Shown: positions 17,636-61,325 of the stretch, piece after piece | Position numbering within the stretch: the stretch's first letter is position 1 | Layout of the letters: each line of letters starts with the position of its first letter | DNA from: Darksidea phi | Lineage: Eukaryota > Ascomycota > Dothideomycetes > Pleosporales > Lentitheciaceae | DNA length: 64,000 nt | Assembly: GCA_030770425.1 (NCBI GenBank) | Contig: JASJFT010000053.1 | Coordinates: 124,001-188,000 of the forward strand | Direction of reading: 5' to 3' | Notes under the pieces: generated by a model | What the model was told of the DNA's origin: nothing | Database searches by the model: none | Seen by the model: only the letters and a program-made list of their open reading frames with translations | Made by a program: the position numbers and the translations under genes

Positions 17636-19391
17636 ATGAGGCTCATTCTTCGCGGCGTGCTTCTTTTCACCATATCTCTTGACGTCCTTGCCAATGAGCT
17701 CTGCCCCATCCTCGGGCCCGTCTTTCCCCCATCTAACAACCTCTCCACCTCAGCATCCTTCCAAAAGGCCCTAAGCACTCTCAACGCAGCCATAGACGAT
17801 GCATTTGCCTCAGGTAAAACCATACATGGCCCTATCTCTGGCAAAGACACCCACTCAATCCAGATCTTCTCAACCGCCGAAGATACGCCGTTGTTTGAGT
17901 ACTACCACAATGGACCAAACCTGGCCAACGGAAATGTGGATGGCGATACAGTATATCGACTCGCCAGTGTATCAAAATTGTATGCGGTGTATCTGTTGCT
18001 GATTGAAGCTGGTGATGGGGTGTTTAATGAAAAGGTAACAAAGTACCTGCCAGAGTTGGAAGGGCAGCAGCATTGGGATGAGGTCACTGTGGGCGCGTTG
18101 GCGGGACATGTGAGTGGTGCTGCTTCGGACAGTAAGTAAATCCATATTCAACCCTGCGCTTCTCTAATCAGTATTGTATTTAGTCTTTGATTGGTATTCA
18201 CTTACTGATCATGGAAGCTCTTCCTCACTTCCACCCGGTGTCTACCCACCGCTCGAAGACGACGAGAGATCGCCATGCGTAGTCAACGTAACGCACTGCA
18301 CCCGAACGCAGCTGATTGATACACTTCTAAGCCAGGACCTGAACCATCATCTCCCCAATACCACACCGGCATACAGCAATGTTGGCTTTATGCTCATTGG
18401 ATACATTCTTGAGGCGATTACGGGCCAACTCTTCGAGGAAATACTTGAGCGCTCGCTCAAGGAACCGCTATCCTTGACCCACACATTCGCATCAAAACCA
18501 TCCGACTCGTCAATCGGCGCAATAATCTACAACGAAACGTACTCGGGCTGGGACATTGACATCTCAGAAACAACAGCGACGGGCGGCATGTATGCCTCAG
18601 CCAATGACTTCGCTACCATAGGCCGAGCTATTTTGTCCTCACGTCTCCTCCCATCAAACACGACACGCGCATGGATGAAACCTACAACATTCACGTCCTC
18701 CCTCCTGGGTGCCGTGGGTCGCCCCTGGGAAATCTTCCGCGCTAGTATATCCGAAACCGACACCCGCATCGTCGACCTATACACTAAAAGCGGAAACCTG
18801 GGTGTGTACAACCCGACCATCGTACTCGTCCCGGAATTCAACGCTGGCTGGGTTATCCTGAATGCTAATGAGGAGGGAAGTAGTGCCTGGACCATGTCCG
18901 GCATCATCGCGGACATCCTGCTCCCCGCACTTCAAGAATCCGCTCGCGAAGAAGCTGATGTCATATACGCCGGTACCTATACCGCTCCTTCAGACGCCAA
19001 TATAAACTCCACCATTACACTCACAACCACTCCCGACCGCCCTGGCCTAGGCCTCACACGCTGGATCAGCAATGGCACAGACATGTTCTCGGTTCTCGGC
19101 CAACCGGGCACCGAGTGGCGCCTCTATCCCTCGAACATCGATCGTTCGGATGACAAAGCTGGCACTGAGATGTACTGGAAAGCTAACCCGGGGACTGCCA
19201 TAGGATACGAGGATGTGGGACCTTTTTCGGCCTGTGGTTCGTGGCTCTTGGTCGATAGGCCGCCTTGGGGGCTTTGGGGGTTGGATGGTTTTACATTCTC
19301 GTTGGGAGAGAATGGAAGAGCGGAGGGGGTGGAAATTAAGGCGTTAAAGGTTGTACTAGAGAAGGAAAAAGATTGGCGCGCAGGCACCTGA
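17636..19391 (+). CDS. secreted beta-lactamase-fold serine hydrolase, copy 2
   Basis: Two exons (17636-18131 and 18184-19391) are joined by a 52-bp intron (GTAAGT...TTTAG), giving 567 residues. A signal peptide (MRLILRGVLLFTISLDVLA) begins the protein. The nucleophile motif S-x-x-K is in LASVSKLYA, the Y-S-N motif in PAYSNVGFML, and a C-terminal beta domain follows from about residue 420 (YAGTYTAPSDANINS...). It shares layout and domain order with the gene at 13259-15418 but has a single intron, so the two are diverged paralogs. N-glycosylation sites are frequent, consistent with secretion. The substrate is unknown. Fungal members are found near secondary-metabolism genes, but no synthase is adjacent here. 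Confidence 0.87.
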
Positions 19392-32525: not shown

Positions 32526-35500
32526 CTAGTACACTTCAAGCACATACCTCCCCTCCTCCTTCAACGTCTCGATCTCACGCCTACTATCCACCTTCTTCGG
32601 CTTCGCGTCATCCCTCGTCTTGCTCTTGTACTCGACCTCGACAGCTTCCTGTAGCACCTCAGTGACATCTGGCACCGGCCACGTTGGACCGCACAGGTAG
32701 AAGCTGCCATCCTGCTGCAGGTACGCTTTGCGAATGTCAGACAGGGTCTGCCGCATACGGTCCTGAATGTAGATCTTCTGCGGCTGATCACGCGAAAAAG
32801 CCCGGCCGAGGAGTGTGATGATACCGGCGTCTTGGTACGCCTCCCACTCTTCACCGTAAAGGTACTCCTCACGCTGGTGACGCGAACCCATGTATAGCAG
32901 CACCTCGCCGATCTCGTGGCCTTGTTGTTTTTGGTAAGCACGTTCCTGGACGAAGGCGCGGAAGGGAGCGAGACCCGTTCCAAGACCGGCCATGATAATA
33001 GGTGCTGTAGTCTTGGGTGGAAGCTTCATGACGGACGGCTTGACTGAGACAGTGACGGGTGCGCCAACCTTGAGGCTATTGAGGTAGCGAGTAGCCTGGC
33101 CAAAGCGGTCGCGGCCTTTGGGATCAACCCAGTTGACAGTGACGATTAGGAGGGAGACGGAAGTCGGCGTGACATGCTGCGAGGAAGCAATGGAGTACTC
33201 GCGCCGTTTCATGGGACTGACGATACGGACAATATCGTGAAAAGAGGGGTGAGCCGATGGAAACTCAAGAAGTATGTCGGCAAAGGTGATAGTATCCACT
33301 TCAGCACGACGCTTGAACTCTGCAGCACCTTCTGCGCCTGCCAAAGTAAGTAATTCCTTCTTTTCCCTTTCGTCCTTGGCGAAGTCGGCGAGACTCTCGT
33401 AAAAGCGCTTGGGCGGACGGCCAAAGATGTCGATGTTTTGGATTAGGCTCTGGTAGACGGTGCGGTTCACGAGAACATTGGGGTCTTCGCGGGACGGTAC
33501 CTCGACGATCTCTTCAGGGTTTAGCCCATACCACTTAATGAACTCTTCAACTTCGGCCTTATCGTTCTCAGCATGGATACCGAGAGCCTCACCAATGGCG
33601 TAAGTGAGGCCGGTATTCCCTAGGTCGAACTCAATGTGGAAGATGTTGCGGTCGTACGTCAATGGCGTCAGGCGACGGTGCTCCTTGACGTGAGCGACGA
33701 CCGTCCTGATGCCAAGGTCTGGGCGTAACGCGGATTCAGTACCATAAGCTTCTTTGAATGCAAGGCCCTTGGCGGCAACCTGCCAGGACTGGAGATAGGT
33801 TGGTGGCTCGGGCTCGGTCCGATCGTAGCCCAGAAAGCCGTTGACGTTGATGTCGGAAGGAAGCTGAATGGACATGCCGTCTTCTTCAACCGTAGTCCAC
33901 TGGACGGGGCACTCGATCTCGCGGAGAGCGGTTTCTAGCTCCCCGGCTAGCTTCTCGAGCACTTCGGAGCTACTATTGATCGCAGCTAGCTTGGACAAGC
34001 CAGAGGTCAGGAGATCTTCGCGAGCAATTTTCAAGAAAGCTAGCTGGATGAGATAGGTCTCGAGTGTAGGGTCTTGCGCGACGCTCTCGGACAGAGTCGG
34101 ATCAAGTACGAAGAGCTCGATGTCCTTGTCAACGATGGTCTTTCGTAGAGCTGGAGACAGCTTCTTCTCAATGTCCTCATTCTTCACGCCGGGTAGCTTC
34201 ACGAGGATGGAGCTGTCGCACTTGACGCTGTTCAAAATGTCGAATTCTTTGAAAAGCGTCTCATCGCCAATGAAGGCGACATCAGCCTGCTCAACAGAGT
34301 AAGGTGCCTCGATGGTGTAGTCGGCGTTGCGGATGTCGGTGCGAATAGTACCGCCACGAACAAGGTTGTCATGCCCACTGCGAACGAAAACGTTCTTCGA
34401 AGAGTCGGCGGAGAGGAGCTTGCTGATCGCAAGAGGCGCAGCAACCGCTGGCGACTCACCCAGGTCCCAGAAAGTATATTGCTTGACATCGGCCGTGTTG
34501 AGGATATCCACGTAAGAGCGGACCTCCTCAGACGTCTTTTCGCCATAAACTTGCTGGAAGACGTCCAGGATGTTGCTGGGGGTCCAGACTTGCTCACGTG
34601 AGTATTTGATGTCAGTGACTTCGACATTCCAGCCAAAGGCGAACTGGACGGTAGCCAAGACGTCAGCGTAAAGCCTAGAGTACTCAGCTGCGTCAAAGAC
34701 AGCGGCCTCGTCTTTGACCTGTCCAAGCACGGCTACGTTCTTTGTGCTCTTGGGAAGCACCTCAAGGAACGCCTCTTCGACGAATGGGCGGTAGACACGG
34801 ACATTGATGACGCCGAGCCGGTCGCCGTCCTTTGCGAGCGCGTTGGCAACCTGCGCAGTCAAGGAAGCTTCTACAGTACCAAAGACGACCAGAACGCTTT
34901 CTGGTTCCTCATGCCCGTAGTAGTCGAATAGCCTGTAGTCTTCGCCAAACTCGTCGTTGAAGGCTTGCAAGAGACGAACGGCGCGTCCTGCATGGTCCGA
35001 GTGCTTCTTGTCCACCTCAGAAACGGCCTTCAGCACCGCCTGGTAGCTGTTGTAGAGTCTCGACTGATCCAAGGTATCAACCAACCGCGCCGTCTCCCGG
35101 CCAACGCTTATACCGTCGTAGGTGTGGAGGGTCGGCAGTACGCTCGAGAGCAGAGTAGCGAAGAGAGACATGTGCTGTGTCTCGAAGATGGAAGGACTAC
35201 AGACTAGGCCGAGGCCAAGGTCTTCGGCTAGTGTCAGGGAGGAGACATAGTCGGTAACGAGGCCAGCGGAGGAATTCGCCGTGTAGTCGACAGCGGCGAT
35301 GTGAGCGGTGAGCGGATTCGCGACCGAGTAGAGGAGCGACAGCTGATCGAGCGAGGGGCGTAGAAAGTTCAGTGTTGCAGAGCTCGCAACGATGGACTGG
35401 GGAATGTGGCGCTTCTTCAGATCGAAGTCTTTGGAGAACATGTACCCCAGCGCAATCGATCCAGCTCCAGTCCTTGTCTCCAGCGAGGTCACGCCTGTCT

Positions 35501-35777
35501 GGTATCCGAAAGCATTCTTCTCTCCCTGCTCCTGCCAGTATCTGACCGCGACATCCAAGTCAAAAGTCTCGGTCGAGTAGGCAAAGATCTTGTCTGAGAG
35601 CGCGTACGCAACCTGCTGGACGAGCGTTTGCGCAGTGAGGTATGTCGGTCCGCTGATCGATTTGAAGGAGATGTCTTGTCCGAAGGGCAGACTGGACGAC
35701 TTTTGCGCGAAGCTCTTGGGCTGCTTCTGCTGCGCTTCGGCACCAGGGCCTGCCGACTCAGTTTGCTGGAAGTGCAT
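32526..35777 (-). CDS. MET10: sulfite reductase (NADPH) flavoprotein alpha component, Met10
   Basis: An intronless gene of 1083 residues. The ATG is at 35777; an upstream GTG at 35783 is not a start. The N-terminal half resembles the pyruvate-ferredoxin-oxidoreductase-like domain of Met10 (SISGPTYLTAQTLVQQVAYA, TRTGAGSIALGYMFSKDF). The C-terminal half is a ferredoxin-NADP+ reductase module. FAD binding is marked by RREYSIASSQH, and NADPH binding by IIMAGLGTGLAPFRAFVQER, LLYMGSRHQREEYLYGEE, FYLCGPTWP and the terminal EEGRYVLEVY. With the haem/FMN-bearing beta subunit (Met5) it reduces sulfite to sulfide in cytosolic sulfur assimilation. The length agrees with the family, and no frame damage is seen, so this is probably an essential housekeeping gene. 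Confidence 0.95.
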   Translation of the reverse strand: MHFQQTESAGPGAEAQQKQPKSFAQKSSSLPFGQDISFKSISGPTYLTAQTLVQQVAYALSDKIFAYSTETFDLDVAVRYWQEQGEKNAFGYQTGVTSLETRTGAGSIALGYMFSKDFDLKKRHIPQSIVASSATLNFLRPSLDQLSLLYSVANPLTAHIAAVDYTANSSAGLVTDYVSSLTLAEDLGLGLVCSPSIFETQHMSLFATLLSSVLPTLHTYDGISVGRETARLVDTLDQSRLYNSYQAVLKAVSEVDKKHSDHAGRAVRLLQAFNDEFGEDYRLFDYYGHEEPESVLVVFGTVEASLTAQVANALAKDGDRLGVINVRVYRPFVEEAFLEVLPKSTKNVAVLGQVKDEAAVFDAAEYSRLYADVLATVQFAFGWNVEVTDIKYSREQVWTPSNILDVFQQVYGEKTSEEVRSYVDILNTADVKQYTFWDLGESPAVAAPLAISKLLSADSSKNVFVRSGHDNLVRGGTIRTDIRNADYTIEAPYSVEQADVAFIGDETLFKEFDILNSVKCDSSILVKLPGVKNEDIEKKLSPALRKTIVDKDIELFVLDPTLSESVAQDPTLETYLIQLAFLKIAREDLLTSGLSKLAAINSSSEVLEKLAGELETALREIECPVQWTTVEEDGMSIQLPSDINVNGFLGYDRTEPEPPTYLQSWQVAAKGLAFKEAYGTESALRPDLGIRTVVAHVKEHRRLTPLTYDRNIFHIEFDLGNTGLTYAIGEALGIHAENDKAEVEEFIKWYGLNPEEIVEVPSREDPNVLVNRTVYQSLIQNIDIFGRPPKRFYESLADFAKDEREKKELLTLAGAEGAAEFKRRAEVDTITFADILLEFPSAHPSFHDIVRIVSPMKRREYSIASSQHVTPTSVSLLIVTVNWVDPKGRDRFGQATRYLNSLKVGAPVTVSVKPSVMKLPPKTTAPIIMAGLGTGLAPFRAFVQERAYQKQQGHEIGEVLLYMGSRHQREEYLYGEEWEAYQDAGIITLLGRAFSRDQPQKIYIQDRMRQTLSDIRKAYLQQDGSFYLCGPTWPVPDVTEVLQEAVEVEYKSKTRDDAKPKKVDSRREIETLKEEGRYVLEVY

Positions 35778-35882
35778 TCTCACGGCCTTCTACCCGAGAA
35801 AGCTTCAAAGGAAGCTATTGGTTGACTTCCTGTGAGGTTGAAAGAGAGCAACTCTCCCTGCGGGTCACGGAGGGAAGGCAAG

Positions 35883-53791: not shown

Positions 53792-55797
53792 CTATCCTTG
53801 ATCCTTTTCACTCACAGGCCTAACCTCCGCTGATGTTTCCATATCCGCAACGACTTTATCTGTTTTCCAGTGCACATCAAAACTTCGAAAGACTGTGAAA
53901 AATGCCACCCCACTCAGAACCATTGCGCCCGCGAGCGCCGCATACATGGCCACAAGCCAAGGATCCTTGGATACTGGTCCAAGAGCCATACCAAGCGCCG
54001 CTCCCAACGCCGCCGTGAACTGCTCGAAGGCTTTCACCAGCGCTTTCATGTTAGTCGGAGCCTCCGCGTACGCGAACTCATTTAAGGCCACGAAGCCAAA
54101 GATCTCACTTGTGGCCAGAAAGATGTGCAAGGGGATTTGGGCCCAGATGCTGACCTCGTTAGGCCGGTGATGGGTCGTTTCCCCCTCCGTAGCAACAATG
54201 GCAGCTTCGCAGGAAAGCGGGCGAGAGAAGCATGGTGCGCGACTGTAAATGATCTTTTGGATGCCGGCCGCGTAGGCCATTGTCAGCGCCATCAGAATGA
54301 ACGCGATTGTCATCCTAGCAATTGGCCCTAATGAGACACGGTGGCGCGAGAGAAACGGAAGGAGGAATATTTGGAGGAGCGGATTAAGAAAAATATAGGC
54401 AATCGCATTGAAAGACTGGACTGTGTCGTTTGAAATCCCAGATAGCTGCATTTGGTTGGCCTGGGAAATGATGTTGTTCATCGACTGGTTGAAACACAAG
54501 TAAAAGAGTGTGAAGCAAACCACCACTCGACAGGCTCGGAGCCCGCGGCGGATCTCCTGCACAAACTGTGAGGTCCATGGTGCGGATCGATTGAAATGCT
54601 GCTTCTGGTACGAAGGATCGGCGGCGCTGAGGTGGAATCCGGCTTGAGTCGCAACGCTTAGAACCCTGGCTGTGTGGGGTAGCACAGTGCCCTGTGGAGG
54701 TAGTTTTCCTAAAAAAAGATGACTTAATGTTGGTGAAGGTTAACGCGATGCGAAGGACTTACTCAGACGGCCATTCCACAATACAAATGGTAAGATGGAT
54801 GCGCTTAGAAAGCACAAGGGTAGTAAATAGGCAGCCCAGAATCCGATCTTCTTCTCCATGAGTGTTGTAGCAAGGGTAGATAAGGCAGCGATATTTATCA
54901 TCCTACTCCACCATATCAGCACTGCCTAGAAGACTTACGTGTGGCATTAGCTAACCAATAGAAAGCATTGAACACATATTGGACGGTAAGTTTCCGGTCT
55001 CTCACAACCAGCTCTCCCGTCTTATCACGAACGCACTGGGGACTCTCCTCGGGAATCTGATCCCCTTGGGGAAAAGGTCAGCCCTATAGGTATGCCCTTT
55101 CTATGAGAGGAACTCACCCAGAAAGGGAAATATGACGGCACTTGTACCTCCCTGGCCTAAGCCAATCAACACCATAGACACAATAATACCCCCCAAAGCG
55201 GTGCGTTCATCTTGAATTACAGGTGGTAGAGCCGTTGCAAACAGTACTATTTCACCAGCTACAAAGATGCTGCAAAGAATGAGAAGATGGCGCTAGGGAC
55301 CAAAAGAACACTCACACCAGACTGAGAAGGAGTGTTCTATATCTCCCCACCCATGAATCCGAAATGATCGCAAAGGGCAAAGGTGTTAGGTAGCTGAAAA
55401 ATAAGAAAGCATTGTTGATGATAGTTGCCTTGGACTGGCCGAGCCCAAGCGCCCCTGGGGGTAGTTTGCCGGGTGGGTTCTGTAGATAGTTTTCTGATTC
55501 ATGTTAATTGATAACTTGATACTGGTGGAATACTGGGGCGATCTTACGCCACGGAATGGTGGTACCGTAGAAAGCAAATCGTTGAGCAGCTCCTGTAAAG
55601 GCAACAAGCCATACCATCACAGGCACGTCACCAGCAACATGTCGAAGATTCGCCAATTCCTCCACACTTGCATTTCTCGGGTATGAGGGGCTCCGTCCAG
55701 TATTCAAAGGAGGCCTAGAACTGTTGTTTGACTCCGGGCATGCTATTTCGGCGGCTTGTTGAGACGACTTAGCAGCCATGTGCGGAATGGATGCCAT
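53792..55797 (-). CDS. POT/PTR2-family proton-coupled oligopeptide transporter
   Basis: A multi-exon gene with ATG at 55797. Exon 1 ends FYGTTIPW and is joined by a GTAAGA...ATCAG intron to QNYLQNPPGKLPPGALGLGQ, then NNAFLFFSYLTPLPFAIISD. Further exons hold GGIIVSMVLIGLGQGGTSAV, VQYVFNAFYWL and the long last exon 53792-54700 with several membrane spans. The layout (12 predicted spans, a large loop after span 6 with DPSYQKQHFN) is that of fungal PTR2 peptide carriers. The usual E-x-x-E-R-F-x-Y-Y-G motif of the first helix is weakened to AAQRFAFYG, suggesting altered proton coupling or substrate. It lies divergently from the ATP-grasp gene and may move its dipeptide product. Confidence 0.88.
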
Positions 55798-56282
55798 ATA
55801 AAGTTACTGGAGTTAGATAGAACGCATGAATGAAAGGGACGGAGAAAGCAGGAGATCCACACACTCATAGAACGGAAATCCGTGAGACATTATGTAGCGG
55901 TTTGCCTTGCATTTCCTGCTGAACGGCATGTGGCAAGGACAGTGGATCCTTGATTCCTATCTATCGTTCGCAATACCGCCAAGTCTAGGAAGCGGCACAC
56001 AAAAAGAGGTATCGTTGGCGGGCGAGAGTCCGGTGAGAAGCGGTAGCTCCGAAGGAGCGCCTGCTTACTTGAGTGGTGAGGCACAGCAGCCCCTCCAACA
56101 AGATCTGACACATCGAGTGTGGGCATCATCTCACCTGCAGTCATGATCCTTTATTCACAAAACGAAGGAAGTCGACTGGGAGTGTCGTGAACCCCATTGA
56201 TTAATTAGGGCTTACTGTTACCACTGAACATGGTGGGATTCGACGAACGTACAACTCTGCGGACGAGGTCTTAACACTGGTT

Positions 56283-56290
56283 TGACGTCA
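56283..56290. promoter_or_regulatory. CRE-like palindrome TGACGTCA
   Basis: A perfect 8-mer about 485 bp from each divergent start codon (transporter and ATP-grasp ligase). A bZIP factor could co-regulate both; this is inference from position. Confidence 0.35.
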
Positions 56291-56541
56291 TCTTACCAAG
56301 TATGTGGCACAGCGAACCAAGAGCTACGCCGCAGGCAGCTATTTTGGAAACCTTCGTTTTCATGCCGCCATTCGCGCGTACTATTTTGCCGGTAATATAC
56401 GCCTTGTGCTTGAGAAAATGTGCGAAAATAATTGCCGGTACATGCGGCCCCCACACGAGAATGCATTCGGCCCGAACAATATGACCACCCGGACCCGAGT
56501 CCATCTGAGGCCAGGAGCCAACTTTGCAGGATGATGCATAT

Positions 56542-56607
56542 GCATGTAACCTTAGAGCTTCCGGACGATACGTATGTATACAACCTTGGAACTACCAGAC
56601 GATAGGT
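56542..56607. repeat. two imperfect 34-bp direct repeats
   Basis: Copies share [GT]ATG-TA-ACCTT-GA-CT-CC-GACGATA-GT (56542-56573 and 56572-56607). They sit in the divergent promoter and could be a duplicated regulator site. Confidence 0.5.
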
Positions 56608-56772
56608 ATGTATGCATTTAAATTTTCTATGAGATTCCATGGTCCATAATCAGAGACATTGCCCACTGCATGTGAAGATTCCGGTATTCGGATAACGTCA
56701 AGGTATTGACCGAATTCCGCTGCATTGAGAAATCCTTAGAAGCATGCGATTAACGGTCGGGGAATTTAGACG

Positions 56773-58762
56773 ATGGCAAGCTATAGTTGCCTATTGTCGG
56801 TTTGCCTAAGAGGCAAGGAGCGTATGTGTTGAGGTCGTTCTATCATACCGATTCACTCACAGAGGAACAGTGACTCTTCCAGCACGTTGGACACTCAATG
56901 CCAACGTGGCGCAACGCTGCTGTTCGACCTTGGATTTGATAATCGACCGCGCGACTGAAAACATTAACAAGGCGAACCTCGAATCGGTACCGCTCAATAT
57001 TGAGAGCAGCCTTAAGTGGTCTGCCTTCCTCACAAATAGTCTCCGATGCCTGGAACAACCTGGAGCTCGTGATCGCTATATCGCGATCAAATTTATCCTT
57101 CCAGACCGCCCAGGCTTCTGTAGCCGGTCGGATTTCTTGGAGCGGCGTCTGGAAGGACTCGACACCGTTGTGGAAGTAGAAGGCTTCCTAGAACCTCGAC
57201 AAGAAATCAGGCCCGCAATTCTTCCAAGCACCAACAGTCTCGATGGGTCGCAGCTCCTTCAGATCCTGTCGTATGCGTTGGGCGCAATGGTCGCCAAAGA
57301 CGTTGATTTTTTGGACGAGATCGAAGCAGAACTAGGCAACCGTTTGTCCTTCCCTTGGATCTCTTCTACCCCTCCCCCCTTGAGGCGGATCGCTTACGTG
57401 AGAGGGAGATACAACATAGATCACAGTAAGCGCATATGGGAATCAGCCCGGACGCTAGGTATCGCTGTTGTCATCATCGACAAGGAAGGCCATTGGCTAC
57501 AACACCCTGAATGGGCTCATCTGCGGGAAGCCTTCATTCCTGCGAATCTTGACCCGGACGAAGGTTTTGTCGACCGACTTGTCGATGCCATTCGAAACTA
57601 CGGCAAACCGATACATGGTATCACTACCGTCAGTAACAAACGCATGGTCGGGGTTGCGCGAGCGTGTGAGAAGCTTGGACTGCCCACTTCACCGTCGGAA
57701 GCTTTCACCATCGCGGCAGATAAATTCAGATCGCGCGAGATCGAGCCACCCACGGACATCACTTCATTCCGGGTGCAAAACATCGAAGAGCTGAGAGCGC
57801 GTCTGTCTTCAAACCAGTTTGCCCCCGTTCAATACCCGGTAGTTGTAAAGCCCTGCATAGGCTGGGCTAGCGAGTGTATCTCCAAAGTCCATAATCAGGG
57901 TGAGCTTATCCAGGCGGTTGAAAGGGCGTCGGAACGACATCGCACGTCTCCCATTCGGCGTAGCGATGTTATGATAGAGTCATACGTCGACGGTCCCGAA
58001 ATCGACGCCAACATTGTCCTCCTGGATGGCGAAATAGTGTTCTTTGAGGTCGCAGATGATTTTCCGAGCTTAGCAGATCTTACTCGCAACAAGTGGAATG
58101 ACCCGTTCCAAGAAACGTCGATGGTTCTGCCGTCTCAATTGCCCCAGGATGAGATCGATATCATTCGGGCTTCTCTGCATCAGACGCTATTAAGACAAGG
58201 CTTCAAACACGGCGTATTCAACTGCGAGGGACGCGTGCGGCACTCTCGCATGAGATATGGCATCCGCAACGGAGAACAAGATCTCGTCGAGGCAGAGCCG
58301 AGTCAAGACGAGCCCAAGGCACCGAGTTTCTACCTCCACGAGATTAATGCCCGGCCCCCAGGGTACTATGGGAATGTCGCATCCAACATCACTTATGGCG
58401 TCGATTACTATGCCCTGGATATCCTATACGCCGTTGGGGACATGGAGCGATATCGTTCGCTGGCGCACCCTTTCGAGCGAGGGCCACAGTGGTGGCTAGT
58501 AATCGTCGTATTGCCGGAAGAAAGAGAAGGGATCATGGTAACAGAGGACGCATGTGGAGAATTTCTTGCAAAGCATGAGGATCTCCGGGCTTCGGTGCCG
58601 GATTACATGACTTGGAAAAGAGGGCAAAGTAGACTCGAGGGGCCCGGTGCTAGTCAATTGGGTTTTGTAGGTTACTTCTCCGTCATCAGTCGCAAGAATC
58701 GTGAAGAGGCTTTGTATTTGGCTGGTAGGATTAGGAAAGAGTTTGGTTACCAGCTTGCGTAG
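56773..58762 (+). CDS. ATP-grasp amino-acid ligase (carnosine-synthase-like)
   Basis: Exon 1 is 56773-56821 and exon 2 56871-58762, split by a 49-bp intron (GTATGT...AACAG). The long frame itself has no ATG before residue 150, and this splice supplies one in phase (MASYSCLLSVCLRGKE-LTLPARW). The product is 646 residues. An N-terminal region precedes a preATP-grasp domain (LRRIAYVRGRYNIDHSKRIW). The ATP-grasp fold has the nucleotide-binding Lys (about residue 343) in YPVVVKPCIGWASE, the strand MIESYVDGPEIDANIVLLDG, and the metal-binding E-x-N-x-R motif in LHEINARPPGYYGN (Glu near 507). The enzyme would activate a carboxylate as acyl-phosphate and join it to an amine, as carnosine synthase does with beta-alanine and His. 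The neighbours, an aminomutase and a peptide carrier, suggest a beta-amino-acid dipeptide. Confidence 0.87.
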
Positions 58763-59739
58763 GGGGAGCTAGCCAATCGGTTTTCGAAAGTGGGCTTTAC
58801 CTTGCACCTAGACCCACTGCAGGCCGTGTGCATTATCACAATGTCCCACGGTAGATTAACATGGTCATTGCTTTTATTCGATAGCCGCTAAGTAACGGGG
58901 CTGGCCAGTTTCCTGGGACCGCAGGCTGAGCAATCTGTATTGTTGTTGCCCCCACAGTTAGATAGATGAAGAGGGGTTACGCCAAATCCTCGCTTCGGAT
59001 TTATTAATATATGGACCCGCAGCCCTTGCAGGCCCCGAAATATCCCGGACCAATGCAAGCCTTTTTGAATATACCGATGAGTGCGCGATCCTTCTGGCGA
59101 ACGATAACAAGTCAAAATGGCCAACTAGCCAGCCCATGTTCAAGCTTACAAGCGCATGGTAGCTTATACCTGACATTATTTCAGAGACACTTCCTCAACT
59201 TAGCATCATAGCGAAAGAGTAAAAAGGTCAATAATAATCGCGGTGATGAAGCCGTTTGCTCGTCTTCTGTTTGAACCCTGAATGAGATTCCCGAGGCTAC
59301 GGGTCACTTTCTTATCGTACGGTGTTGCCTAACGCGGCAAATTAAGCCGCACATGCGCCGGAGTTCATCTTATAGAGAGACCAATTATCGTCCAAGTCTG
59401 CTCGGGACGGTTCCACTATGCATACAGGTGCGTCTCGGTATACATAGGTATTGGTGCACCACAGGATGAAGTCCGAGCTGCATTGGGTCCCAACGGAAGA
59501 CATTAGCCTAAACACGGGGAAGGCTCTAGCTCCCGTGTGATCTACGCCCGACTGAAACGCTGAAGCGTTTGCGGCTCCGAACCCGCACGACAATCTCGAT
59601 TCGGTATCCACCTGTGGGGTTGATCTCAGGATGCCTAGGCAACATCTATGTATTGAAGGGATTGCCGTCAGGTCTAGCTCGGGGACGGAAGTGAGTGACG
59701 CAGAAATCATTCCAGTACAGCTGATCTTTAGTTCGCCCA
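58763..59739. other. 977-bp spacer between ATP-grasp and aminomutase genes
   Basis: No supported gene. A minus-strand ORF (59342-59863, 173 codons) overlaps the aminomutase start and has no recognisable motif, so I treat it as chance. Confidence 0.45.
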
Positions 59740-61325
59740 ATGAACTGTTTCCGAGAGCCACTGTTGCTAGCCAGGTCAAAGCACATGCTTTACCCCCGGA
59801 GTAATTGCCGCGACGGCGTTCAAAAACTGAGGGCAGCATCGGCACGCCGTTTTCTCTCGGCATCTAGGGGCACGGCCGCTCATCAAAGCTACTGGAACCG
59901 GATACCTGCCTGGTCCGATATCAGTGAAGAGAGCTTTATAAGCTACGAATGGCAGGTAAGGTGGTTGTGCCCACGGCTGGGCCACCTTATTCCGCTGATA
60001 CCACTTAGACAAAGAACTCAATCCACAATGCTCCTCAGCTCTTTCAACTCATGCGAGAAGTTCTTCCTGAAGTACTCCCTCAAAACGGCACACAAAAGCT
60101 AGACCCTAGAACAGCAAATGAATTCATCGACGATGTCAAGAATGGGATCCAGCGGGCGCCCATGGCCATTAGACTTACCCCACACATACTCAGCTTGATG
60201 AACTGGTGCGATCCACTTCGGGATCCTCTGATACGCCAATTCGTGCCCTTGGCATCTCGAATCCTTCCGGATCACCCAAAACTCACTCTCGACTCGCTGG
60301 ATGAAGTCGGGGATTCTCCGGTAAAAGGTATCATCCACAGGTATCCAGACAAGGCCGTATTTCTGGGTATGGTCCTGTTCCATTGACAACCCCTAAGCAA
60401 TTGCTAATGATAAGAATTTTAGCGACCTCTGTATGTCCCGTGTATTGTCGCTACTGCACGCGGTCGTACACCGTGGGAGCAGACACCCAAGCCGTTAACA
60501 AGACACGTTTTCTCCCCATCCAGAAGAAATGGGACGTCATGTTTGATTACATCTCGCGCACCCCAAGCCTCGCGGACATCCTCGTCTCCGGCGGCGACGC
60601 CTATACATTGAGCCCGGACCAACTGCGCGCCATTGGGAAACGTCTCCTTGAAATACCGCACATCCTCCGGATCCGAATCGCTAGCAAAGGCGTGGCGGTT
60701 TGCCCGAGCAGGCTGATCGACCCGAAGGACAAGTGGACGAGCGTCCTGATCGATCTCGCGCGGCGGGGTAGGAAGATGGGGAAGAGCGTTGCGCTGCACA
60801 CGCACTTCAATCATCCACAGGAGATCACTTGGATCACGAAGTTGGCAGCGCAGAGGCTGTTCGAGGAAGGTGTTGTGGTGAGAAACCAGACCGTGCTGCT
60901 CAATGGCGTCAACAACGACGTGAATACCATGAAGGAGTTGATCAAACAGCTTGCATCGATCAATATTCAACCGGTATGACTTGAACCCTCCTTTCGCATA
61001 TCGGTGTCCGCTTTGACTCAAGCGCTGACTGCCAAAGTACTATGTATTCCAGAACGATATGGTTCGTGGGGTGGAGGGTCTGCGAACCCCCCTGCACGAG
61101 ATTCTTGGGCTCGAAGCGGCGATCCGAGGCTCGACGGCGGGGTTCATGACTCCCAACTTTGTCGTGAATTTACCGGGTGGTGGGGGCAAGAGATTGGCGT
61201 GCTCGTACGACTCGTACGACAGGAGTACTGGGCGATCAACATTCGTATCCCCTGGTAGTAAAGATGCGGGCCGTAAATGGGAATATTGGGATCCGTTGTC
61301 TTCGCTCCCTCAAGCGAGCAATTAG
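59740..61325 (+). CDS. radical-SAM/PLP 2,3-aminomutase (lysine 2,3-aminomutase family)
   Basis: Four exons (59740-59955, 60009-60366, 60423-60973, 61038-61325) give 470 residues in unbroken phase. The first 45 residues are basic and Ser/Ala-rich (KLRAASARRFLSASRG), probably a mitochondrial presequence. That suits an oxygen-sensitive Fe-S enzyme. The C-x-x-x-C-x-x-C cluster motif is SVCPVYCRYCTRSY (Cys196, 200, 203), formed exactly at an exon border. DILVSGGDAYTLSPDQL and KSVALHTHFNHPQEIT are KamA hallmarks. The PLP Lys is K426 in LPGGGGKR. Of the two Asp residues that bind the lysine epsilon-amine in bacterial enzymes, the first is kept (D382 in YYVFQNDM) and the second is Asn (N419 in FVVNLPGGGGK). 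It moves an alpha-amino group to the beta carbon. The substrate may differ from lysine. Confidence 0.93.

What the first reader, a model, noticed from the sequence alone, without database searches (positions are those of the whole stretch)
53792..61325. Candidate NRPS-independent pathway: aminomutase + ATP-grasp ligase + peptide carrier
Seen: a POT/PTR2 carrier (minus), an ATP-grasp ligase with intact K and E-x-N-x-R motifs (plus) and a radical-SAM/PLP 2,3-aminomutase (plus) lie side by side, with a shared divergent promoter between carrier and ligase. Known: KamA-type enzymes make beta-amino acids; carnosine-synthase-type ATP-grasp enzymes join a beta-amino acid to an alpha-amino acid; POT carriers move di- and tripeptides. 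Inference: together they would make and transport a beta-aminoacyl dipeptide, without any NRPS or PKS. Cluster finders that require a synthase backbone would probably miss it. I know of no described fungal pathway with this trio, but I could not search.
Basis: partly seen in the sequence, partly recalled or inferred. Interest (0 to 1): 0.92.

Follow-up and report, generated by a model that had tools for sequence, protein, structure and literature searches.

The report
Fungal three-gene dipeptide cluster with aminomutase
Three neighbouring fungal genes (an enzyme that moves an amino group, an enzyme that joins amino acids, and a peptide carrier) appear to travel together in several distantly related fungi, so they probably make and move one small unknown peptide-like compound.

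The parts
53792..55797 (-). POT/PTR2-family carrier, 581 aa, exons 55548-55797, 55316-55493, 55118-55269, 54956-55064, 54763-54902, 53792-54708
   Evidence: PF00854 over cut-off; gene model; 13 cluster POT rows one branch, SH-aLRT 100
55579..55593 (-). degenerate ExxER proton-coupling motif, reads GAAQR (E1 to G, E2 to Q, R kept)
   Evidence: E2 to Q in 12 of 12 readable cluster POT rows and in 0 of 95 readable other rows; own C5 POT reads ELCER
55798..56772 (.). 975-bp divergent intergenic stretch between POT and ligase start codons (putative shared promoter)
   Evidence: gene models; no regulatory motif shown
56773..58762 (+). ATP-grasp ligase, 646 aa, exons 56773-56821 and 56871-58762
57848..57850 (+). 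ATP-grasp lysine codon (VVKPC), invariant in 64 rows
58340..58354 (+). ATP-grasp metal-binding motif E-I-N-A-R; E, N and R invariant in 64 rows
59740..61325 (+). KamA-family radical-SAM/PLP aminomutase, 470 aa, exons 59740-59955, 60009-60366, 60423-60973, 61038-61325; basic N-terminus resembling a mitochondrial presequence
   Evidence: model of relative P0121: residues 5-44 pLDDT under 50
60434..60457 (+). CPVYCRYC, the three cysteines for the [4Fe-4S] cluster
61047..61058 (+). F-Q-N-D: Phe at lysine-aminomutase position 290 (Tyr in most others), Asp at 293 kept
61167..61169 (+). Asn at lysine-aminomutase position 330 (Asp in most others), specificity switch candidate
61188..61190 (+). PLP lysine of PGGGGK (LAM K337)

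Best explanation
A three-gene, NRPS-independent fungal biosynthetic cluster. The KamA-type radical-SAM/PLP enzyme shifts the amino group of an L-amino acid from C2 to C3; the substrate is probably not lysine, because position 330 (Asp in lysine aminomutase) is Asn and 290 (Tyr) is Phe, while Asp293 is kept. The ATP-grasp enzyme activates a carboxylate as acyl phosphate and joins it to an amine, giving a (pseudo)dipeptide that contains the beta-amino acid. The POT carrier, which lacks the proton-coupling glutamates, moves the product out of the cell or into a compartment. Shown: intact genes, catalytic motifs, predicted folds, shared contigs in other species, clade-specific residue changes. Inferred: chemistry on a new amino acid, that the beta-amino acid is the ligase's substrate, identity of the partner, direction of transport, and mitochondrial location of the aminomutase.
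Against: No expression, metabolite or enzyme data. Contig sharing was read from contig lengths and locus tags, not from fetched fungal DNA, and on multi-megabase contigs it does not prove adjacency. Seven of 21 species have ligase and POT on different contigs. P0127 and P0128 (N330 type) come from species with no listed ligase or POT, so their linkage is unknown. At least two of the nine 'other KamA' control species (Aspergillus flavus, Drepanopeziza) have the two proteins named from different strains, so they could hardly match. Asp293 is retained, so lysine use is not excluded. Loss of both ExxER glutamates is not special to the cluster: 27 of 95 readable other POT rows show it, none on a listed ligase contig, and some NPFs without the motif are still proton-coupled. 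Nothing shows that the ligase takes the aminomutase product.
Confidence: 0.58

Rival explanations
1. POT and ATP-grasp form the functional pair (making and moving a dipeptide or amino-acid conjugate), while KamA is a passenger that supplies a free beta-amino acid or has its own role.
For: POT-ligase pairs are wider than KamA: of the 14 named same-contig species 5 also have a listed KamA on that contig and 9 do not (absence from a list of the best 120 is not absence from the genome). The genome's C471 pair sits beside a TPP enzyme instead.
Against: 6 of 6 and 6 of 6 linkage of N330-type KamA against 0 of 9 and 0 of 11 for all other KamA rows; residue changes confined to the linked clade.
Confidence: 0.2
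2. A detoxification or scavenging unit: the POT brings in or returns a peptide-like compound, and the ligase tags a small acid or amino acid so that it is harmless.
For: POT carriers are classically importers; amino-acid conjugation is a known way to disarm acids (general knowledge). Patchy distribution.
Against: The cluster POT lacks both motif glutamates; a radical-SAM aminomutase would be an unusual detoxification enzyme; no peptidase domain was seen among the scanned ORFs from 39.9 kb rightwards. A beta-lactamase-type (PF00144) protein, a family with some peptidases (recalled), lies at 18168-19388, over 34 kb away.
Confidence: 0.12
3. KamA still makes beta-lysine, and the unit makes a beta-lysyl dipeptide or osmolyte; N330 and F290 only tune the enzyme.
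For: Asp293 and Arg134 are kept; the best equivalog score of P0121 is still lysine 2,3-aminomutase, 227.9 bits against 191.7 (arginine) and 192.9 (glutamate), all far below cut-offs. Three of 80 bacterial loci also have Phe at 290 with Asp330.
Against: D330 is present in 80 of 80 fetched bacterial and 108 of 111 other listed fungal rows.
Confidence: 0.1

Closest known systems
L-lysine 2,3-aminomutase (Clostridium subterminale KamA, PDB 2A5H)
   Different: Asn at 330 and Phe at 290; N-terminal extension like a mitochondrial presequence
Glutamate 2,3-aminomutase
   Same: Asn at the position of lysine-aminomutase Asp330 (recalled, Asn369 in the C. difficile enzyme; not checked by any search)
   Different: Keeps Asp at 293 where the glutamate enzyme has Lys (recalled); NCBIfam cut-off of 650 not reached, 192.9 bits for P0121
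BL00235 and BacD/YwfE L-amino acid ligases
   Same: ATP-grasp fold over model residues 167-629; BL00235 is the best match by sequence profile and by fold
   Different: Extra N-terminal region of about 180 residues; 19% identity; substrates unknown
E-64 pathway of Aspergillus (Cp1A, Cp1B, Cp1D)
   Same: Small fungal cluster that builds amides without an NRPS, using an ATP-grasp ligase (PMC12568646: abstract and three sections read)
   Different: Cp1B is described as having no detectable Pfam domain and resembling homoglutathione synthetase; the four-gene cluster has an Fe/alphaKG oxygenase, a PLP decarboxylase and an ANL synthetase and, in the sections read, no aminomutase
Plant NPF carriers without ExxER (NPF2a, including CrNPF2.9)
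   Same: POT-family carriers without the charged motif residues; NPF2a members work in efflux, CrNPF2.9 exports strictosidine from the vacuole (passages)
   Different: Fungal, keeps the motif Arg, transport never measured

Membership tests
KamA radical-SAM family (TIGR00238, 2A5H fold) | CxxxCxxC cluster motif and PGGGGK PLP lysine | tested here: met
   window protein. Among relatives P0122 and P0129 read PGGGMK, and the P0129 gene model lacks the cysteine stretch
KamA radical-SAM family (TIGR00238, 2A5H fold) | Family score over cut-off 199.2 | tested here: inconclusive
   relatives P0121 208.7 and P0127 202.8 over, P0123 197.9 just under; the whole spliced window protein was not scanned, the frame of its longest exon gave 132.4
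L-lysine 2,3-aminomutase proper | Asp293 and Asp330 that hold the substrate's epsilon-amino group (role recalled) | tested here: not met
   Asp293 kept, 330 is Asn
L-lysine 2,3-aminomutase proper | TIGR03820 equivalog cut-off 525.4 | tested here: not met
   227.9 to 239.7 in three cluster-type relatives; ordinary fungal P0174 and P0163 also fail (225.8, 237.3)
ATP-grasp L-amino acid (dipeptide) ligase | ATP-grasp fold, nucleotide lysine, E-x-N-x-R | tested here: met
ATP-grasp L-amino acid (dipeptide) ligase | Ligates two amino acids with ATP to ADP | not testable with these tools
   needs purified enzyme
POT/PTR2 carrier | PF00854 over cut-off | tested here: met
POT/PTR2 carrier | ExxER proton-coupling motif | tested here: not met
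   GAAQR; but only 13 of 95 readable other listed rows have the first Glu, so the motif is often incomplete in this part of the family
E-64-type fungal cluster | Fe/alphaKG oxygenase, Cp1B-type ligase without Pfam domain, ANL amide synthetase | tested here: not met
   ligase carries PF18130 and PF13535; no oxygenase or ANL domain among the 12 other window ORFs scanned, of 74; the paper's description

The most novel reading that the evidence does not exclude
A class of fungal clusters built on an ATP-grasp dipeptide ligase plus an ExxER-degenerate POT exporter, with interchangeable third enzymes; here the third enzyme is a radical-SAM aminomutase that has acquired a new amino-acid substrate, giving a fungal route to a beta-amino-acid dipeptide without any NRPS.
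Probability: 0.4. Interest if true: 0.78.

Novelty: new variant of a known kind. Interest (0 to 1): 0.65.

Why it matters
Cluster finders that look for NRPS or PKS backbones may pass over it (inference). If right, it gives fungi a compact route to beta-amino-acid peptides, adds a radical-SAM aminomutase with a changed substrate pocket, and suggests that POT carriers, known as peptide importers, can serve as metabolite exporters in fungi. Each step can be tested with one purified protein or one deletion.

Tried and rejected
Bacterial origin of the whole unit: in 80 bacterial KamA loci (the best 80 of 582; up to 6 kb each side, some shorter) no ligase or POT match at 1e-3 (0 of 80). Single transfer into Pleosporales: a concatenated tree joins the window and Periconia at only 74/72, and weak single-gene trees disagree, so number and direction of transfers stay open. 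Shared promoter words: about twice the shuffled mean, inconclusive, not followed up. The ligase tree joined long branches of own C323 and C434; their place is not used. The first POT tree held three badly spliced own rows (C100, C1, C450) and was rebuilt without them. Residues of glutamate and arginine aminomutases at 293 and 330 could not be checked: no listing pointed to them, and one search gave no match over the family's cut-off in 4 genomes. The genes between the locus tags (ANO14919_074220, GQX73_g4108) could not be read. Literature: ten searches were answered, lists capped at 20-25 rows; I saw no title or abstract start on this trio. One search did not test the aminomutase name (0 occurrences in its 20 listed papers, since the printed name has a comma), and one search returned one unrelated paper. 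No fungal DNA collection was available for direct synteny. On checking, I lowered two odds slightly (best explanation 0.6 to 0.58, novel case 0.42 to 0.40) and raised the detoxification rival (0.10 to 0.12), because one search showed that loss of both ExxER glutamates is shared with 27 POT rows not on a listed ligase contig.
Full report
WHAT IS THERE. The window lies in a fungal genome of 51.35 Mb in 477 contigs, contig C427 (fungal by its relatives). At 53792-61325 three intact genes were confirmed. The ligase has a short first exon, 56773-56821, found by spliced alignment to a relative, which explains why its long reading frame has no early methionine. KamA has four exons. POT has six exons on the minus strand. 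Twelve other window ORFs, of 74 with 130 aa or more, were scanned for Pfam domains; the nearer ones include a HET-domain gene, a histidine phosphatase, a tannase and an epimerase-type reductase, and four gave no match. None looks like a fourth member, but most ORFs were not scanned.

IS IT A UNIT. Protein searches listed the best 120 ligase, 120 KamA and 120 POT relatives (longer hit lists were cut), each with the length of its longest contig. Counting named species present in two lists: N330-type KamA with ligase 6 of 6 on the same contig; with POT 6 of 6; all other KamA rows (Asp, Ser or Thr at 330) with ligase 0 of 9; with POT 0 of 11; ligase with POT 14 of 21, the seven misses being Aspergillus steynii, Biscogniauxia marginata, Colletotrichum higginsianum, C. 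tabaci, Daldinia eschscholtzii, Stachybotrys elegans and Zopfia rhizophila. One further unnamed contig of 74110 bases holds ligase and POT. All three share a contig in five species: Whalleya, Hypomontagnella, Xylariaceae FL0016, Hypoxylon FL1857 and Periconia. The test needs both proteins from one assembly; in at least two of the nine control species (A. flavus, Drepanopeziza) the source names show different strains, so the fair control there is 0 of 7. Locus tags tighten some pairs: MMC30_007676/007677 in Trapelia (POT, ligase), GQX73_g4107/g4109 in Xylaria multiplex (POT, ligase), ANO14919_074210/074230 (ligase, KamA). This is indirect synteny: fungal DNA of other species could not be fetched.

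THE WIDER MODULE. In this genome four ligase loci were found (a lower bound) and POT matches on nine contigs. Three of the four ligases lie within about 1 kb of a POT gene: the window; C471, divergent as in the window, with a TPP enzyme on the other side of POT; and C323, in tandem, where both POT and ligase carry in-frame stops in the spliced alignment and so seem to be decaying together. The fourth, C434, sits among PKS, aminotransferase, SDR, 2OG-Fe oxygenase and NRPS-like genes, with no POT match on that contig. The linked rows are spread over Xylariales, Sordariales, Pezizales, Pleosporales and others (orders looked up for Whalleya, Hypomontagnella, Periconia, Dothidotthia and Wilcoxina; the rest recalled).

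THE AMINOMUTASE HAS CHANGED. In 2A5H numbering (alignment), position 330 is Asn in the window and in nine close relatives, Ser or Thr in three further rows, Asp in 108 of the 121 fungal rows and in 80 of 80 fetched bacterial loci. Position 290 is Phe in 10 of 10, against Tyr in 108, Leu in 2 and Phe in 1 of the other 111 fungal rows, and Tyr in 77 and Phe in 3 of 80 bacterial loci. Asp293 is present in every row of these sets; Arg134 wherever the row is readable. That Asp293 and Asp330 hold the epsilon-amino group and Arg134 the carboxylate is recalled from the published structure, not from a call. The N330 rows form one branch at 99 in a tree that includes those columns. The genome keeps a second KamA at C423 with Asp330. 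The simplest reading is duplication and a new substrate. Which one is open; an amide or other uncharged side chain would suit an Asp/Asn pair, but this is a guess.

THE CARRIER. The ExxER motif reads GAAQR in the window. Of 14 cluster rows 12 are readable: E2 is Gln in 12 of 12, E1 is Gly in 11 and Val in 1. Of nine other ligase-linked rows 8 are readable and 8 read G-x-x-E-R. Of 101 remaining rows 95 are readable: E1 is Glu in 13, E2 is Glu in 68, E2 is Gln in 0; 27 lack both glutamates, nearly all with the Arg lost too, and none of the 27 lies on a listed ligase contig. So loss of both glutamates is shared with neighbouring POT groups that are not known to be ligase-linked, and only Gln at E2 marks the cluster clade. 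In plants such loss goes with passive or efflux transport, with exceptions that are still proton-coupled (PMC6288477, PMC12780319, passages only). Export is therefore plausible, not shown.

WHERE IT COMES FROM. The C423 KamA of this genome falls among Pleosporales (a 16-row branch of Pleosporales alone, 99; labels recalled except Dothidotthia), and the decayed C323 POT is sister to that of Lojkania (100; a pleosporalean, recalled). Yet the named ligase rows in the 19-row cluster clade are nine Xylariales and Periconia, a pleosporalean; the other nine are unnamed or the window. The 13 cluster POT rows, a group taken from the tree, again form one branch at 100. The spread is patchy, which suits transfer between the two orders or old presence with many losses; the concatenated tree does not decide. 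The host order rests on these two genes.

VERDICT. A real and apparently conserved, probably biosynthetic unit; a new variant of the known ATP-grasp, NRPS-independent kind. Not shown: product, substrate, direction of transport. In the held library the listings of nine ligase, aminomutase or fungal searches (capped) showed no paper on this trio; two of them were poor tests, and the library lacks most subscription journals.

Noticed in passing
G000 C471:97601-105243 (L018, L019): Second POT and ATP-grasp pair in the same divergent layout, with a TPP-dependent enzyme (best NCBIfam match PRK08327, 448.0 bits, just under its cut-off of 456) beside POT.
   Followed up: partly
G000 C323:169164-172736 (L020, L021): POT and ATP-grasp pair in tandem, both with in-frame stops in the spliced alignment: a pair that seems to decay together.
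   Followed up: partly
G000 C434:98001-117868 (L022, L023): ATP-grasp ligase of the same family inside a cluster with PKS, class I/II aminotransferase, SDR, 2OG-Fe oxygenase and an AMP-binding plus condensation-domain protein; the last frame looks like an ABC transporter by eye (not scanned).
   Followed up: partly
P0130, P0131, P0132 (Bathelium, Xylographa, Hymenoscyphus): KamA relatives with Ser or Thr at position 330, near the N330 clade; one of the three has Phe and two have Leu at 290. Their gene neighbours are unknown.
   Followed up: no
P0250-P0265 and others, 27 POT rows: A neighbouring group of fungal POT carriers also lacks both ExxER glutamates, mostly with the Arg replaced by Gln; function unknown.
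   Followed up: partly
P0034 with P0023, P0025, P0029 and P0031: The Zymoseptoria ligase lies in one 12-row branch (100) with Aspergillus oryzae, parasiticus, flavus and pseudonomiae ligases, another odd species grouping.
   Followed up: no
L031 6001-7368: KamA relative on a contig labelled Klebsiella pneumoniae MAG; the label looks doubtful.
   Followed up: no
window 32532-35789 minus: Long frame with flavoprotein reductase (FAD_binding_1) and a pyruvate:ferredoxin-oxidoreductase domain, like a sulfite reductase flavoprotein (recalled).
   Followed up: no
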